From assembly GCF_020541305.1 (NCBI RefSeq), contig NZ_CP047396.1, positions 372,001 to 436,000 on the forward strand: 64,000 bases of DNA, read 5' to 3'. The stretch comes from Candidatus Vallotiella adelgis (lineage in GTDB: Bacteria > Pseudomonadota > Gammaproteobacteria > Burkholderiales > Burkholderiaceae). The translations under genes were made by a program, and so were the position numbers. The first letter of the stretch is position 1. Each line of letters opens with the position of its first letter. Shown here in pieces: positions 2,258 through 30,438 of the stretch. The notes under the pieces are model-generated. The model was given only the letters and a program-made list of their open reading frames with translations, did no database searches and was not told the DNA's origin.

Positions 2258-2297
2258 CAGGCATTGTTAGTCGTTTCCTAACGACTAACAATGCCTG
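2258..2297. repeat. Perfect inverted repeat, 18-bp arms, 4-nt loop
   Basis: The left arm caggcattgttagtcgtt at 2258-2275 and its exact reverse complement at 2280-2297 are separated by tcct. No T-run follows directly on either side, so it is not a standard intrinsic terminator. There is no gene within several hundred bases. Confidence 0.9.
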
Positions 2298-21147: not shown

Positions 21148-23733
21148 TTAACTATTATTCGTTAGAGCTACCGCTAGTCGATCAGTTTCAGCAATCTGCT
21201 GCAAGCCCGATAGCTTAGTACCTTTGTCAAGGTTGATTAGTGTAACACCTTGGGTAACTCGGCCCATCTCGCGAATTTCAGCAACACGCGTACGAATTAG
21301 CACACCAGCGGTCGTGATTAGCATAATCTCACTATCTGGTTCGACTAGCGTAGCAGCCACCATCTTGCCATTTCGCTCCGAGGTTTGAGTCGCGATTATA
21401 CCCTTTGTTCCGCGTCCATGCCGTGTGTATTCTGCAATGGGCGTTCGCTTACCGTAGCCATTCTCAGTCGCAGTCAGTACTGATTGTAATTCACCGTCAG
21501 CTACCAGCAATGCAATGACCTGCTGACTACCCTCAAGCCGCATGCCGCGGACGCCGCGGGCCTCCCGCCCCATCGGGCGCACGTCGTTTTCAGCAAACCG
21601 AACTGCCTTTCCGGCATCGGAGAACAGCATTACATCATGCTGCCCGTCGGTAATCTGCGTACCGATTAGAAAATCTCCGTCATCGAGCGCCACTGCGATT
21701 ATACCCTTCCTTAGCGGCCGCGAGAATGCTTCAAGTGGTGTCTTCTTTACGGTGCCCAGCGATGTGGCAAGGAATACGAACTTTTTTGCTGAAAACTCTT
21801 TGACTGGTAGTACCACATTAATTTTTTCGCCTTCCTGCAGCGGGAACATATTCACGATTGGCCGGCCGCGTGAGTTGCGCGAGCCTTGCGGCACTTCATA
21901 GACCTTGAGCCAATACACGCGCCCTCGATTCGAGAAACACAGGATGTGATCATGCGTGTTCGCAATGAATAGTGTCTCAATCCAATCATCGTTTTTTGTA
22001 ACGATTGCTTGCTTGCCACGTCCACCACGTTTTTGTGCATAGTACTCGGATAGCGGCTGCGATTTAATGTAACCGGCGTGTGACATCGTGACAACCATAT
22101 CCTGCGGTGTAATTAGATCTTCGGTACCCAGCTCGATAGCGTTTAATTCAATCTGCGAGCGTCTGTGGTCAGCAAATTCCGCTTTAATCGCGACCAGCTC
22201 GTCGGTAACGATCGTGCAAATCCGCTCTGGTTTTGCTAAGATATCCAGTAGATCTACGATCCGTGCTATTACCTCGCGATATTCGGCTGTAATCTTATCT
22301 TGCTCTAGGCTAGTTAATCGCTGTAGACGCGTCTGTAAGATTTCCTGAGTCTGTGTGTCTGATAGCCTATACAGGCTATCAGACTGCGTACCAAAAATAT
22401 CCGCTAGCCCATCAGGACGAAAAGCATCTCGCCCGTCTGGAGTTTCTTTTTGCGCGTTTGACAGCATATCGCATACTAGAGCCGAGTTCCACGAGCGCAT
22501 CATCAGCTCTTGCTTTGCGATCGGTGGCGTTGAGGCCGACTTGATAATCGCAATAAACTGGTCAATGTTCGGCAGTGCCACTGCTAGCCCCTCAAGAACG
22601 TGACCACGTTCGCGTGCGCGGCGTAACTCATGGAGGGTGCGTCGCGTAACTACTTCACGCCGATGCGATAAGAAGCACTCTAGTAGATCACGCAGGTTTA
22701 GTAGCTTCGGCTGACCGTCAACCAACGCAACCATATTCATACCAAACGTATCTTGCAGCTGCGTATTTTTATATAGCTTGTTAAGAACAACTTCCGGTAC
22801 TTCATTGCGTTTAAGATCAAGCACCACACGCATTCCGCTTTTGTCAGACTCGTCACGGATATCGGAAATGCCTTCGATCTTCTTCTCATTAACTAGCTCA
22901 GCGATTCGCTCGAGTAGAGCGCGCTTATTAACCTGATACGGCAACTCATCAACAATAATCGCCATACGCTGGCTGCGGTCGATCTCCTCAAAATGAGTTT
23001 TAGCGCGCATTACAATACGCCCACGGCCGGTACGATAGCCATCGTGCACGCCTTGCACGCCGTAGATGATCCCAGCCGTCGGGAAATCAGGCGCTGGGAC
23101 GAGTTCGATTAGTTCGTCGATCGATGCCTGTGGGTAGTGCAGCAGATGCTGACACGCATTCGTAATTTCGCTTAAGTTATGAGGCGGGATATTTGTTGCC
23201 ATGCCAACTGCGATACCAGACGAGCCGTTGATTAATAGGTTTGGAATCCGAGATGGCAGTACTTGTGGCTGCGTTTCACTACCATCATAATTCAGCTCAA
23301 AGTTCACGGTCTCCTTATCGATATCGATAAGGAGACCGTGGCCAATCTTCGCGAGTCGGATCTCGGTGTAGCGCATCGCCGCGGCGTTGTCTCCGTCGAT
23401 TGAGCCGAAGTTGCCCTGCCCGTCTACCAGCATGTAGCGCAACGAGAAATCTTGCGCCATACGCACGATCGTTTCATAGACCGCACTGTCGCCATGCGGG
23501 TGATATTTACCAATCACATCGCCAACGATGCGCGCAGATTTTTTATACGCGCGATTCCAATCGTTTTTCAGCTCATGCATTGCATAGAGCACGCGTCGAT
23601 GCACTGGCTTAAGTCCGTCACGCGCATCAGGCAATGCTCGGCCTACGATTACGCTCATCGCGTAGTCTAGATAGGAACGACGCATTTCCTCTTCAAGAGA
23701 AATAGGCAAGGTCTCTTTGGCAAATTGATCCAT
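21148..23733 (-). CDS. gyrA: DNA gyrase subunit A
   Basis: ATP-dependent type II topoisomerase subunit that cleaves DNA and introduces negative supercoils with GyrB. Key parts: [17 protein letters not shown] start, the winged-helix region [17 protein letters not shown] (quinolone region; position 87 is Glu), active-site Tyr122 in AAMRYTE, and the GyrA-box QKRGGRGK in the C-terminal pinwheel domain. 861 aa, full length. Two perfect inverted repeats lie inside the coding sequence (23305-23340 and 22357-22384); residues 133-136 (GLLI) inside the first are unlike the family. No clear ribosome-binding site. Confidence 0.97.
22357..22384. repeat. Perfect hairpin in gyrA, 12-bp arms, 4-nt loop
   Basis: gtctgatagcct, loop atac, then the exact complement. 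It encodes gyrA residues about 450-459 (SDSLYRLSD); the YRLSD part is conserved in family members while the preceding SDSL is in a variable loop. Confidence 0.9.
23305..23340. repeat. 36-bp perfect palindrome inside gyrA
   Basis: Eighteen-bp arms with no loop, centred between 23322 and 23323. It encodes residues 132-143, [12 protein letters not shown]. The DIDKETV half is conserved in GyrA; the HGLLI half is not (E. coli has HELMA). Confidence 0.93.
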
Positions 23734-24684
23734 TTATTAGTATCTTTGACTAGCTTTGGCGTGCTGGTGTTCTAGGCCTCAACTCAAGCATCAACTCAAG
23801 TAAGCGAAAAGTGCATCACTGTACATGGGCGGCGTCGAACAACGCGCAGCCAGCGATATTAGCATGCGAGCTAGAGCATCCCCGATGAGTAGTACTTGCT
23901 AGAAGAATTAGCCACAACGCCCTCGCTCGAAAATATCGAGAAACGCTGGCCCGAGGTATTCCACTACTTTTCTGAAAAGCATTACGCACTTCTACCCACA
24001 GTGCCTATGACCAAGCTAGATAGTATTCTTCAGCGACTATTAAAAAACTGCAATTACCGAATTAAAACCCAGCGAAGGGGAGAAATTTATTGCCAGATAT
24101 TTATTGCCAGATAGTACTGACATAAGAATATGCCGTCGCACGCATTAGTTACTGATCTAAGGCACATATATCGGTTTTTACACTGCTTTAAAAGTGTAAT
24201 CTACTTAGTATCTGCTCTGTCTTTATCAATAAATTCACAGTCAAACGTCGGCAATCTCAATTACGAAAATACTAATCAGCTTCTAAAGCTTATGTATATG
24301 TTGTTGTCATATCTACATTAGAACAATTTGCTGCGAGCTTTAAAACAAGCCGATAACACTTACTAAGTAAGTAGCACCGACGAATACGTGTGGATGGATG
24401 GCATAAGCGGACATGTGAAATGCAAAGTTTGCTGTTGGCCCACCACTTCAACCGCCGATTCACACAGCTTTTCTAACTATTTGATTATACCGACTTCGGT
24501 CGCCACAAGTCCCAAAATCGCTAACAGATAAAATCTACTGTTTGACTTCGAATAGGCAATGCCGCCTGGCTAGGCAAAAGAATCTTAATAAGATTTCGCA
24601 AAAGATTAAAGCTTAGGGCTTTAAAATACTCTGCGCCGTACACAGGCTATACCGGTATCATCAGCTCGTAAAAGTATAAAGACC

Positions 24685-24711
24685 ACTTGTTTCTGCGTCG
24701 CAGAAACAAGT
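24685..24711. repeat. Perfect hairpin, 12-bp arms, 3-nt loop
   Basis: acttgtttctgc, loop gtc, then the exact complement. No T tract on either side and no nearby gene. Confidence 0.88.
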
Positions 24712-25770
24712 CAGGGCATATCCAGTCATAGTACCCCGAGCATCACCATTGATATGGTGGCTAAGGCAAGCTCAATCCGCTTCGTAATGGGCTGAAATTA
24801 AAAGAAATATCAGGGATAAATCGGATATCCGGCAGCAAGCTACCCTATAAACATTATAATCCGCAATACGTTGAGCTACCATCAGATATAGGCTAGCTAG
24901 TGTGATGCTGGATTGCTTCTATACGAGTTCAAAGGAATAGCCTAGTCTATCACCTGATTACTCGGCGCTTCGTGTTAACTGACAATATTCGAATCAACTA
25001 CATGCTGTCATGTCGACATTACTCCTGAATTTTAACCATATGCAAGATATTTTCTTGCCGGCCGCCTCAAGACCACGTTGCCGTATTTGTAAGTGCCAGC
25101 GCAGTCTTATGCGACTTGGATAATAAGATCGCTAATATTGCGCCGTATCTAGCAGCGTTAGTTAACAAAATTGCTACGTGGGCGACTTGCTGGAGATGTC
25201 CTCCTAGAGCGTGTTCGTTTACTTCAGCGTGCTGCGTACCACGTACGCCTGTTGTCTGTTTTGGTATTACATACTAGATCGCGCTATACAACCTTGATTT
25301 CAGCATGATGTAAGGAAGAACCTCTTTACCTATTATCAGGAATATTTTGATATCGACACCACCGCTGTTCAGATGGTAGCCACTCCTACTTGACAGAGTG
25401 TTCGTGTATAACATTTATTTTCAAGTACTATATAGAATATGGAGAAACCGTTAGGCTTAGTACCGCAAGTGTTATCGGCGAGTCAATACCACATTATATC
25501 AGAAGCCCTATTTTCGACTACTTTTGCAGTTGTATGTCAACGTAGCACCGCACCAGCTAGGGTAGTTTAAGTTGACAACGATCATTAGAGTCAAAATATA
25601 GTAAGTTATAGCTATGACAGCGACGCACCCCATCCGATTAAGATTCGGATCATCTGATCGGAACAACAACAGCAGTGCGATGATAAATTGAGATTAAAGC
25701 AGCATAATACAAACTTAGCATGCAAAATATCAAGATGATCGACCAACATCCGTAATCTGTGAGATACTGA

Positions 25771-25776
25771 TATAAT
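25771..25776 (+). promoter_or_regulatory. -10 box of ssrA
   Basis: A perfect TATAAT eight bases before the first base of tmRNA. No strong -35 hexamer is visible 16-18 bases upstream. Confidence 0.6.
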
Positions 25777-25784
25777 AGTTTTTT

Positions 25785-26143
25785 GGGGCCGACTTGGTTT
25801 CGACGTGGGTATCTGAGCAATGTAGGGCATACCGAGGACCCATCACCTCGTAAATCAATGGGGCTTAAGTAACTGCGAACGATACAACGTACGCACTAGC
25901 TGCTTAACACCAGCTAGCCTCGCACTAGCACGCTGACGGGCTAGAGTCGCAAGACTACACGAGGTCATTAACGCCAGCTAATCCCCGGTAAAGTCACGAC
26001 GTCGGGGCTAAAAATCTAGTGAATCGCCATAGCGAAGCGTGTTCGTCCGCGTCAATGTGGTTAAATTAAAAGACTGGACTAAGTATGTAGAACTAGTTGT
26101 AAAGCGCTTGCGGACGCGGGTTCGATTCCCGCCGGCTCCACCA
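25785..26143 (+). ncRNA. ssrA: tmRNA (transfer-messenger RNA)
   Basis: Rescues stalled ribosomes and tags the incomplete protein for proteolysis, with SmpB. One-piece form: 5' end GGGGCCGACTTGGTTTCGAC, 3' end GGTTCGATTCCCGCCGGCTC followed by encoded CCA, whose acceptor arms pair with the 5' end. The resume frame at 25875-25907 reads ANDTTYALAA then TAA, a normal proteobacterial degradation tag ending ALAA. Length about 359 nt. A weak hairpin (ctctct / agagag, around 26169-26190) followed by a T-rich stretch probably terminates it. Confidence 0.96.
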
Positions 26144-26667
26144 ATATTTATCTTTAGTCAAATGACACCTCTCTGGATAACTAGAGAGAGCATGTCTTAT
26201 TTTTATTTATTATAAAGAAGGTTAGATGTTAATTAATAAATTAATTTGCAGATTTATCTACCGAATTTTGGGTTATCTGCAAATATAGTCGATTAGCAAT
26301 TTAAGTAACCCGACGTATTAAAAATGATTTTTTCTATACCGAAGAGTATAGAAAACCCTATTTGCCAGTCGTAAAGACTGGTACCTTCACATCAAAAAGC
26401 AAGACCATGCTATCCTAAACAATCCGAAAATACCCAATACTAATCTAATTATGCTGCGATAGCATATAGTAGGGTAAGATCTAAAACCACAAGCTGTGTA
26501 CTTTCGATTAAGTCTAATAATGTTTTCTGCTAGTACTCGGTGTAATATGTTATTTAAATACAGTGTTGATCTTTGTTAGATTTATGCTATTTACTTTCTT
26601 ATTGCAGCTGATAGCAGAAACAGCTTAACGCCCCGGAAGAATCTCAAGGTATCTGAATAAATACGAA

Positions 26668-26715
26668 GCATTATATCCAATCATCTCCCGATCGGGAGAT
26701 GATTGGATATAATGC
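26668..26715. repeat. 48-bp perfect palindrome, no loop
   Basis: Twenty-four-bp arms centred on cccgatcggg (centre between 26691 and 26692), running from gcattatatcc to ggatataatgc. No T tract and no adjacent gene. Confidence 0.95.
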
Positions 26716-26992
26716 GCTATTGGTCACGTAACTGCGTGCCACATTTACGCTAAGTGTGACCCTATAAGTGCGGCGGAGTTGCGACGAGAAACGCCAGCTC
26801 AAGCAATAAAAAGTGCTCAGATCACGATCTGCATTCATGATCTAGCTACCTTTATCTAAGTTTCTAATCAGAATAGATGTATCTGCGTAAGTCGTCGGCC
26901 GACAATCTCACGCTAGCTAAAAAATTGAGTTAATAAAGCAATTGCCGGGAAAGCGTGGGTAAGAGGAGCGTTTAACGCCTTGCTATTGCACA

Positions 26993-27027
26993 GCACGAGA
27001 GGGGAGGTGCACGCCCCCCTCTCGTGC
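26993..27027. repeat. Perfect hairpin, 12-bp G/C-rich arms
   Basis: gcacgagagggg at 26993-27004, an 11-nt loop, and the exact complement at 27016-27027. Not followed by a T tract. Confidence 0.88.
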
Positions 27028-28007
27028 GAGATCATAAAAGATCTGCCAGTATCCGGTTAGGTACATGCTGAGTACTAATTGCATATTGTGCTCAGCTAGC
27101 AATATCTAAAGGTGCGCACCCATACTCTGGGTGCGCCACTAATAATATGAGTGGCAGTCTAATCTGAGTACGTTTAGGTTGCCTTTTCTCGTTCCTTACT
27201 ATCGGGCAGGTATGATGATGCGTATCGTTGAGCTTGTATCCCTATCATATATTGCCATCTAAACTTTCTAGTAACATCTAGCGTTGATAGTTCTAGAAAT
27301 AACAAGCGGGTACTTTAGGATAAACCTACCCCAAAAAAGTAGGCATGATCTCAGTTATCTACTTTAACATTTTCTACTAAAGAACACTACTCTATCTGCT
27401 GCAATGAATATCACTATATTTACTGTAGTTAACTAGTATTGCAAACAATATAGCAATAATAATCTTCGATGCGATGATATTTAAAGTGCTTGCCACCACG
27501 CCCAGTACGTTGCAATTACCCTCACTTATGCTCCGTCGTTGAGGTGATATGAAGCCGATTGATTTTGGAAAGCAGCACTAACCGCATAGTTAATGCATTG
27601 TCAGTCAGTGTAGGCCTGTATACGTTGCTCTATTTGGAGATAAAATGCCAATATAGGTAGCAACTCCAGTCGGTAATAATATGTGCATATTCGGTTCTTA
27701 GCATGGCGGAACTTGTACAGATTCCGCGCGATATAGCCCACTTATTTCAGGTATCATGAGATCGGTTGCTATACGACATCGTCTAGATTTTTGCTCAGCG
27801 GGTTAGCGAGCAGTGGGTCAATTAGAGGTTTCTTACCTAATGTGATATTACAGCGCAGCCTATATAGGCATATATGTAGCATATAGACAAAGAATTTTGG
27901 CACTTGACTTTGAGATGCATCGGCTAACGAAGAATCGAGTCCACCGAGTATATCGGATATACGACTACGCGAAAAACGCCTAACATAGGAGAATAGAGCT
28001 AAATCCA

Positions 28008-28083
28008 TGGTGCCGGAGAGAAGACTTGAACTTCCGACCTTCGCATTACGAATGCGCTGCTCTACCAACTGAGCTACACCGGC
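28008..28083 (-). tRNA. tRNA-Thr (anticodon CGT)
   Basis: Cloverleaf on the minus strand: GCCGGTG acceptor, D-arm AGCTCAGTTGGTAGAGC, anticodon loop TTCGTAA (CGT, reads ACG), T-arm around GGAAG TTCAAGT CTTCT, encoded CCA. The sixth acceptor pair is T opposite T (28078 with 28017), a mismatch the usual tRNA-Thr lacks. All other stems pair, so it is probably functional. Confidence 0.95.
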
Positions 28084-28241
28084 AAAAAGAAGTATTGTAA
28101 GAGCGTATAATGTAAGTTAGCAACCCCCCCTTATATGTTAGTAGGGATCATACTTAATATGACTGCTAACTAGTTTGGCATTTCAGATGCTGCTTCTAAG
28201 AAGCTGTACAGCATTAGAAATGTTTATATCTGATAGTGCCT

Positions 28242-29267: not shown

Positions 29268-30438
29268 GATAAGTGTCGAAGAACGCCATTCAAGAAGTGC
29301 GATCACAGGGGTCTTCTGACACCTGCGCCAGTACTGCGCTGCAATCTATAGCACTTTAATTCTACATGGATGGTGTAACTCATTAGTACGTTATTATGCC
29401 TACGCCATAATAACTGAATGTTAGATGAGTTCCACAGATTAGTCTCGCGTATTGTCGGCATAAAACCGATAAATATAGCCGTGGGAAGGGTCGGCAGAGC
29501 GGACTGATCGCCGGGGCGTTAGTATCGCGCATAGAGTTGCCAAACATCAGCTCTTTCGGGGCTAATAATATAGCGCTGTCACAGTGCTATATGACCTACG
29601 ATTTTCCGATATACATTACTATGAAGTTTTGGCAATAAGAGGCGGAATCGCAGTACTATAAATGCTGCACTTCGGCTCAAAGCTAGTGTGGAGTAGTTAC
29701 ACTTTATAGTGCGTGCTATTAGATAGCGCAGAAATCCATGCAGAGTGCTAGATTTAGTCTTTTTATTATCCGTGCCCATATATAATATTATATATGGGCA
29801 CGGATTAATGCAATCTTACCTAAATAAATTAGACGATAGTATACTAACACGCGCTGGAAATATCGGTGGAATAACTATTGCCAATAGAATCTGCATACAA
29901 GTGGATGACTGCTGTTACAGCAAGTGCGCATTAATCTATAGCAACGACCGAGACGTGACTGTTAAGTCGGCACTATATATAGTATATAAGAGAAAATTCC
30001 ATTAATTACATGATAGTTTTCCTGCTGAAAATATTATATCAGCGCATGCCCGCGTAAAGATCGGAAGCACACAATAGCTATATTGTGTGTAGGTTCATAT
30101 GTTCTTATGACTATGAGAATTAAAATTATCTCAATCGACGAGCGGGTTTTCGATAAATTCTGGTGATGCTCCAAAATTCTACTAAGACTAACGCTTATTT
30201 AAACTAGGTAGTACGTTCATACTAGCGGCTTAGTAAACAGTACTCCGACCTATGTCGATCTAGGAAATACTCGTACGATTCAGTTGCACCCAGATTACAT
30301 AATGAGAGCCTAGCTCACTACATTGATAGTTTTGCTGTTTCTAAACGCAATCGCACCCGGAATCGGGTGTATGTATAGCGACCTCTACCCACAGTTGCTC
30401 GACTATCACGCCACCGCACATCTACATAACAGCAATAG
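29268..30438. other. 1.17 kb spacer between pepN and fbp
   Basis: No gene recognised. Contains the 38-bp perfect palindrome at 29768-29805 and a 9-bp hairpin (cacacaata / tattgtgtg) at 30068-30089. Confidence 0.65.
29768..29805. repeat. 38-bp perfect palindrome, no loop
   Basis: Nineteen-bp arms: atccgtgcccatatataat and its exact complement, centred between 29786 and 29787. It lies in an empty spacer, with no T tract. Confidence 0.94.

What the first reader, a model, noticed from the sequence alone, without database searches (positions are those of the whole stretch)
23305..23340. 36-bp perfect palindrome inside gyrA that appears to have rewritten protein sequence
Seen: 18-bp arms, zero loop, within an essential gene, coding for [12 protein letters not shown] (residues 132-143). 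Known: the DIDKETV side is conserved in GyrA (E. coli, from memory, HELMADLEKETV), whereas HGLLI is not; Glu, Met and Ala at positions 133, 134/135 and 136 are normally found. Inference: the non-conserved arm is an exact reverse-complement copy of the conserved arm, the mark of template-switch mutation at a quasipalindrome, changing several adjacent residues in one event. A gene under strong constraint makes chance very unlikely.
Basis: partly seen in the sequence, partly recalled or inferred. Interest (0 to 1): 0.78.

Follow-up and report, generated by a model that had tools for sequence, protein, structure and literature searches.

The report
Self-copied palindrome within symbiont gyrase gene
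In an insect symbiont's essential DNA gyrase gene, one short stretch appears to have been overwritten by a reversed copy of the stretch next to it, a known kind of copying slip that changed two protein residues; perfect mirror sequences of this sort are unusually common in this symbiont group, mostly outside recognisable genes.

Summary
Window 23305-23340 is a perfect 36-bp palindrome (18-bp arms, no loop) inside an intact gyrA (21148-23733, - strand). Chance gives about 7e-6 zero-loop palindromes with arms of 18 or more in the 464 kb sampled; 5 were seen. The genome groups with Candidatus Vallotia (adelgid symbionts) and Mycetohabitans. So a quasipalindrome was corrected by template switching, probably in one event. 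Two corrections: relatives read HELLADIDKETV, so only two residues changed (E133G, A/T136I); and the site is not unique. Perfect near-loopless palindromes are enriched in Vallotia and in another reduced Burkholderiaceae genome, mostly outside recognisable genes. In coding DNA the rate does not differ significantly from Mycetohabitans, and pooled coding palindromes show no one-arm bias, so the gyrA case rests on its own alignment. Mechanism and endosymbiont enrichment of inverted repeats are both in print.

The parts
21148..23733 (-). gyrA, DNA gyrase subunit A, 861 aa, intact reading frame
   Evidence: ORF; 91% identity to Mycetohabitans orthologues; first 500 aa match solved gyrase A chains
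23305..23340 (.). 36-bp perfect zero-loop palindrome; codes for GyrA residues 132-143
23305..23322 (-). donor (conserved) arm: codons 138-143 IDKETV; 1 of 18 bases differs from the nearest Mycetohabitans (L088)
23323..23340 (-). acceptor (rewritten) arm: codons 132-137 HGLLID; 7 of 18 bases differ from the nearest Mycetohabitans (L088), 8 of 18 from each of G002, G003 and G005; it is the exact reverse complement of the donor arm
22357..22384. second palindrome in the same gyrA (12-bp arms, 4-nt loop), imperfect in the four relatives (5-8 of 12 pairs); both arms carry changes
26668..26715 (.). 48-bp perfect zero-loop palindrome, no ORF of 120 aa or more over it (same kind of feature)
29768..29805 (.). 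38-bp perfect zero-loop palindrome, no ORF of 120 aa or more over it (same kind of feature)
2258..2297 (.). 18-bp arms, 4-nt loop, no ORF of 120 aa or more over it (same kind of feature, or terminator-like)

Best explanation
A DNA polymerase copying gyrA stalled at an ancestral imperfect palindrome. After copying the IDKETV arm, the growing strand folded back on itself (or switched to the other strand), used that arm as template for the next 18 bases, then returned to the normal template. This overwrote the HELL(A/T)D codons with the reverse complement of the neighbouring codons and gave a perfect palindrome. The growing strand would have been the window + strand, on which the donor arm is 5' and the acceptor arm 3'. 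The net effect was two amino-acid replacements (E133G, A/T136I) with no change of length, and the allele became fixed in a small-population, vertically inherited symbiont. Shown: the palindrome, the imperfect palindrome in relatives, the one-sided derivation, the preserved frame. Inferred: that the changes came in one event, the choice of strand, and fixation by drift.
For: Nearest Mycetohabitans (L088) pairs 12 of 18 at this site. Across 77 distinct orthologous 36-mers the number of pairs is 4 to 12, with 63 of 77 at 8 to 11, against 4.5 expected at random, so the codons are inherently quasi-palindromic. Acceptor arm 7 differences, donor arm 1; in G002, G003 and G005 8 against 2 or 3. Six of the seven acceptor differences fall at pairs unmatched in L088; the seventh matches the donor's own substitution. 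That substitution (GAC to GAT, codon 139) is shared by G002, G003 and G005, which fits a copy made after it. Independent substitution from 12/18 to 18/18 has probability about 1.4e-8 per site at the gene's 17.5% divergence; 244 sites of at least 12/18 pairing exist in the 464 kb sample. Other one-sided candidates, both in G002: release factor 2 gene, arms 6 and 0 differences against G000 (3 and 0 against G007, 5 and 4 against G016); NAD synthase gene, 6 and 0 against G000.
Against: Pooled over 33 Vallotia coding palindromes (arms of 10 or more, loops up to 4), the one-arm asymmetry is no greater than random (sum 62 against 55, P 0.23; for the 15 with arms of 12 or more P 0.35) and the arms are only slightly more diverged than flanks (220 against 193 expected). 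The two longest comparable coding palindromes, in leuC of G002 and a fumarate hydratase gene of G003, have changes in both arms (4 and 7; 5 and 5, against G007). Seven differences in an 18-nt window is itself not rare in this gene: 25 of 645 windows have 7 or more. No relative is close enough to show the event as a single step, and no reads were available.
Confidence: 0.85

Rival explanations
1. Independent point substitutions, mostly synonymous, happened to complete the palindrome.
For: Only two residues changed; the gene is 17.5% diverged and 25 of 645 windows of 18 nt carry at least 7 differences.
Against: All six pairs unmatched in the nearest relative became matched, with the changes on one side; probability of a perfect palindrome about 1.4e-8 per site. 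Synonymous-codon shuffles of 280 kb of this genome's genes give 0.0 palindromes with arms of 14 or more and loops of 0-2 per run (10 runs), against 3 observed.
Confidence: 0.03
2. The palindrome is selected for, as a protein-binding site, RNA hairpin or regulatory element within gyrA.
For: It folds strongly (z -8.3).
Against: It is not perfect in any of 109 other gyrA loci (best 12 of 18 pairs). Perfect palindromes of unrelated sequence lie in unrelated genes and outside genes.
Confidence: 0.05
3. Sequencing or assembly artefact (for instance a hairpin-derived read error).
For: Palindromes cause sequencing trouble; reads not seen.
Against: The change is in frame, of exactly unchanged length, and leaves an 861-codon ORF.
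Confidence: 0.04
4. The copying was a gene-conversion-like repair of one arm by the other (cruciform with mismatch correction) rather than a polymerase template switch.
For: The end product is the same.
Against: MutS is decayed in all four Vallotia-type genomes, which makes correction driven by mismatch repair less likely today. No test separates the two here.
Confidence: 0.1

Closest known systems
Quasipalindrome-associated template-switch mutation in E. coli (thyA hotspot, lacZ reporters; Ripley 1982 model), as described in PMC7202029 (abstract and passages seen)
   Same: An imperfect inverted repeat becomes a more perfect one by using the nascent strand as template.
   Different: Here it is a natural, fixed change of seven bases in an essential gene with 18-bp arms (the paper's reporters rest on an 18-bp quasipalindrome and a 4-bp frameshift); no genetic test of strand or enzymes here.
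Template-switch arm homogenisation in Saccharomyces cerevisiae genes (UTP5, REG2; PMC8604942, abstract and passages seen)
   Same: UTP5: a 4-bp arm became 11 bp with six substitutions and two residue replacements, almost the same anatomy; REG2: arm 5 to 16 bp with seven point mutations.
   Different: Bacterial symbiont, 18-bp arms, zero spacer; divergence from the nearest relative is far greater, so single-step origin is inferred.
Coding palindromes in Nematomorpha mitochondria (PMC6649704, abstract and passages seen)
   Same: Perfect inverted repeats inside conserved protein genes of a small genome; template switching proposed as one possible mechanism.
   Different: Those repeats are longer (mean 43 bp, arms to 142 bp) and lie on average 37 bp apart.
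Excess of inverted repeats in prokaryotic genomes, with sequence-directed mutagenesis among the proposed causes (PMC4060949, passages seen), and high inverted-repeat frequency in endosymbionts (PMC10434271, abstract and passages seen)
   Same: Genome-wide over-representation of inverted repeats; endosymbionts are over-represented among genomes with the highest frequency.
   Different: The second survey counts repeats from 6 bp up with a mismatch allowed; the passages seen do not polarise individual events.

Membership tests
Quasipalindrome-associated template-switch mutation | Ancestral imperfect inverted repeat at the same site | tested here: met
   12 of 18 pairs in L088; 77 distinct orthologous 36-mers have 4-12 pairs, random 4.5
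Quasipalindrome-associated template-switch mutation | Derived allele is a perfect or more perfect repeat | tested here: met
   18 of 18, zero loop
Quasipalindrome-associated template-switch mutation | Changes confined to one arm and each predicted by the other arm | tested here: met
   7 acceptor differences from L088, all complementary to the donor; donor 1 difference, shared by G002, G003 and G005. Holds for gyrA; not for the pooled set
Quasipalindrome-associated template-switch mutation | Changes arose together in one event | tested here: inconclusive
   No sufficiently close relative; nearest gyrA is 17.5% diverged in DNA
Quasipalindrome-associated template-switch mutation | Dependence on replication strand and on exonucleases | not testable with these tools
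   SbcD and ExoI models find nothing in the 4 Vallotia-type and 4 Mycetohabitans genomes; XseA and RecJ present in those 8; replication direction not established
Intrinsic transcription terminator | G+C-rich stem with short loop followed by a T run, at a gene end | tested here: not met
   Zero loop, inside the coding sequence, no run of four or more T directly after either arm
Insertion element or transposition footprint | Added sequence or target duplication | tested here: not met
   No gap over codons 132-143 in any of 109 aligned gyrA loci

The most novel reading that the evidence does not exclude
Genome reduction in bacterial symbionts opens a distinct mode of protein change: template-switch palindromisation, in which blocks of adjacent residues in essential genes are overwritten by neighbouring codons, fixed by drift and never cleaned up, so that reduced genomes carry a dense, readable record of replication-fork switching.
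Probability: 0.25. Interest if true: 0.6.

Novelty: new member of a known kind. Interest (0 to 1): 0.4.

Why it matters
It is a long and unusually clear natural example of quasipalindrome correction in an essential bacterial gene, and it shows that several adjacent changes in a conserved protein need not be read as positive selection or as many events. The excess of perfect palindromes in Vallotia and in a second reduced Burkholderiaceae genome makes such symbionts a convenient natural system for asking whether drift, repair-gene loss, or a raised switching rate leaves these marks.

Tried and rejected
Repair-gene loss as a single cause. SbcD gave no match in the 4 Vallotia-type and 4 Mycetohabitans genomes (3 of 12 genomes, all other Burkholderiaceae, had weak matches; none of 12 over cut-off), and ExoI gave none in 12 of 12, so their absence is not specific to Vallotia. 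XseA is present in 12 of 12 and RecJ in 11 of 12, with no match in G016. MutS is decayed in all 4 Vallotia-type genomes and over cut-off in the other 8 of 12, G016 included, but G016 has a similar palindrome excess, so MutS loss is not needed. RecG is decayed in G000, G003 and G005 and intact in G002, and G002 has the fewest palindromes of the three sampled; suggestive only.

Pooled test for one-arm conversion: negative in Vallotia (n 33, P 0.23) and in G016 (n 11, P 0.27). Coding enrichment against Mycetohabitans: not significant.

Replication polarity was not pursued beyond base skew. Sampled stretches show negative GC skew from 120 kb on and positive skew only near the contig start, and the origin was not located.

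Naming G000 through its plasmid-like contig: a 20-kb piece matched 16 plasmid records, the best five shown being Mycetohabitans rhizoxinica and V. tarda at 77-81% over 9% of the query, so the species was not identified.

Full report
WHAT IS THERE. Window positions 23305-23340 form a perfect 36-bp palindrome with 18-bp arms and no loop, inside an intact 861-codon gyrA on the - strand, 21148-23733. It encodes residues 132-143, [12 protein letters not shown]. On the + strand the arm 23305-23322 corresponds to codons 138-143 and 23323-23340 to codons 132-137.

WHERE IT COMES FROM. The window is 372001-436000 of contig 1 of a 1.24-Mb, two-contig genome. That G002 and G005 (1.1-1.2 Mb) are further Vallotia, and the other two large ones Mycetohabitans, is inferred from size and similarity. 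Vallotia are adelgid symbionts, and GTDB lists them as Mycetohabitans (PMC12696581, passages). I infer that the window is from a Vallotia-type symbiont; the species was not identified.

IS IT CHANCE. In 464 kb sampled from this genome (20 stretches plus the window), zero-loop palindromes with arms of 18 or more number 5 against 6.8e-6 expected. With arms of 12 or more and loops of 0-2 there are 20 against 0.1 expected from order-2 Markov sequences.

WHICH ARM CHANGED. Against the nearest Mycetohabitans (L088), the acceptor arm differs at 7 of 18 bases and the donor arm at 1 of 18. Against G002, G003 and G005 the counts are 8 and 2-3. Six of the seven fall at pairs unmatched in L088; the seventh matches the donor's own difference (GAC to GAT). 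That difference is shared with G002, G003 and G005, which fits a copy made after that substitution. Among 109 aligned gyrA loci other than the window's (some are the same species held twice), residue 133 is E in 106, Q in 2 and D in 1. Residue 136 is A in 87, H in 9, T in 4 and others in 9, never I; the four T are the Vallotia-type loci, V. tarda counted twice. Position 135 is L in 109 of 109. Only E133G and A/T136I are therefore real replacements; the remaining changes are synonymous.

WAS THE ANCESTOR A QUASIPALINDROME. Yes, on the evidence of relatives. The 77 distinct orthologous 36-mers have 4 to 12 complementary pairs of 18, 63 of the 77 having 8-11, where random sequence gives 4.5. The codons for H-E-L-L-A-D-I-D-K-E-T-V are naturally near-palindromic. 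Independent substitution from 12/18 to 18/18 has a probability of about 1.4e-8 at 17.5% divergence, by a simple calculation.

MECHANISM. The pattern is that of template switching at a quasipalindrome: the polymerase copies one arm, then uses that new arm, or the other strand, as template for the second. The mechanism is described for E. coli and yeast (PMC7202029 and PMC8604942, abstracts and passages). The growing strand would have been the window + strand. The yeast UTP5 event (arm 4 to 11 bp, six substitutions, two replacements) is nearly the same in anatomy.

IS IT ALONE. No. The same gyrA has a second, smaller palindrome (22357-22384) that is imperfect in the relatives compared; there both arms have changed. 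Coding palindromes in sister genomes include 18-bp zero-loop arms in leuC of G002 and 25-bp zero-loop arms in a fumarate hydratase gene of G003; in these too both arms differ from G007 (4 and 7; 5 and 5). Clear one-sided cases besides gyrA are in G002: the release factor 2 gene (6 and 0 differences against G000; 3 and 0 against G007; 5 and 4 against G016) and the NAD synthase gene (6 and 0 against G000, the only orthologue held).

HOW WIDESPREAD. Arms of 12 or more, loops 0-2, in the evenly spaced samples: G000 20 in 464 kb (window included); G002 7 in 400 kb; G003 15 in 400 kb; Mycetohabitans G007 1 in 400 kb, expected 0.4; G016, a 1.2-Mb Burkholderiaceae genome of another genus, 15 in 400 kb. 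With all stretches held, the three Vallotia-type genomes have 49 in 1,496 kb and G007 has 3 in 641 kb, P 2e-5. The difference lies outside homology-supported genes (36 in 632 kb against 1 in 420 kb, P 2e-7). In homology-supported coding DNA it is 13 in 864 kb against 2 in 221 kb, P 0.38. The extra stretches of G002 and G007 were chosen by synteny with the G000 samples, not evenly. DNA outside homology-supported genes may still hold genes, since homology was sought only among the sampled stretches. Seventy-nine non-Vallotia gyrA loci (514 kb, GC 61%, redundant in phylogeny) gave 4 against 0.2 expected, three of them terminator-like, so a smaller excess exists there too. Base composition differs between these sets; the Markov expectation allows for that only in part.

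RESULTS AGAINST A STRONGER CLAIM. For 33 of the 35 coding palindromes counted in the three Vallotia-type genomes (arms 10 or more, loops 0-4), an ungapped orthologue at least 55% identical was held. In these the division of substitutions between arms is no more unequal than random (P 0.23) and arm divergence only slightly exceeds the flanks (220 against 193). At such divergence (flanks 12-43%) old events are blurred, but the set as a whole does not prove one-arm copying. The gyrA inference rests on its own alignment.

CAUSE OF THE CLADE PATTERN. MutS is reduced to fragments with stops in all four Vallotia-type genomes and is over cut-off in the other eight searched; RecG is decayed in three of four. 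Szabo et al. report mutS, mutL, recG and recQ pseudogenes in their Vallotia (PMC8692619, passages). But G016 has the excess with MutS and RecG intact and no RecJ match. The simplest common factor is relaxed selection in reduced, drifting genomes with much decayed DNA; a raised switching rate is possible and untested. A survey already notes that genomes with high inverted-repeat frequency are more often endosymbiotic (28 of the top 200 against 1% of the bottom 200; PMC10434271, abstract and passages).

LITERATURE. Searches (searches showed only the top of longer lists) listed no paper on palindromes in Vallotia, and the term 'palindrom' does not occur in the main text of the three Vallotia or Mycetohabitans genome papers searched. 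The library lacks most subscription papers; Ripley 1982, Dutra and Lovett 2006 and Ladoukakis and Eyre-Walker were seen only as cited in the papers above.

VERDICT. Real, well explained, an instance of a known mutation type, with a clade-level pattern worth a proper study.

Noticed in passing
26668-26715 and 29768-29805: Two longer perfect zero-loop palindromes (24- and 19-bp arms) at higher coordinates than gyrA; the region 23734-28241 has no ORF of 100 aa or more and looks decayed.
   Followed up: partly
L170:4739-4788 (V. tarda, G003): 50-bp perfect palindrome inside a class I fumarate hydratase-like gene; the Mycetohabitans orthologue already has 18 of 25 pairs there.
   Followed up: partly
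L164:16360-16419 (G003) and L125:19019-19067 (G000): Terminator-like cores extended into very long perfect palindromes (30-bp arms with no loop; 22-bp arms with a 5-nt loop), as if terminator hairpins seed further arm copying.
   Followed up: no
L117:6042-6077 and L120:18898-18933 (G000): The same 36-bp inverted repeat (15-bp arms, 6-nt spacer) occurs at two distant places in opposite orientation, possibly a dispersed repeat family.
   Followed up: no
G000 contig 1, sampled stretches: GC skew is negative in all sampled stretches from 120 kb on and positive only in the two near the contig start; G000 is also rearranged relative to G002 and G003 near 400 kb and 884 kb.
   Followed up: no
L064: A record titled 'Mycobacteriaceae bacterium' carries a Burkholderiales-type gyrA (78% identical to the window's); probably a mislabelled or mixed assembly.
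   Followed up: no
G016 (unnamed, 1.2 Mb): A second reduced Burkholderiaceae genome shows a similar palindrome excess, 9 of its 15 having a 2-nt loop, and has no RecJ match.
   Followed up: partly
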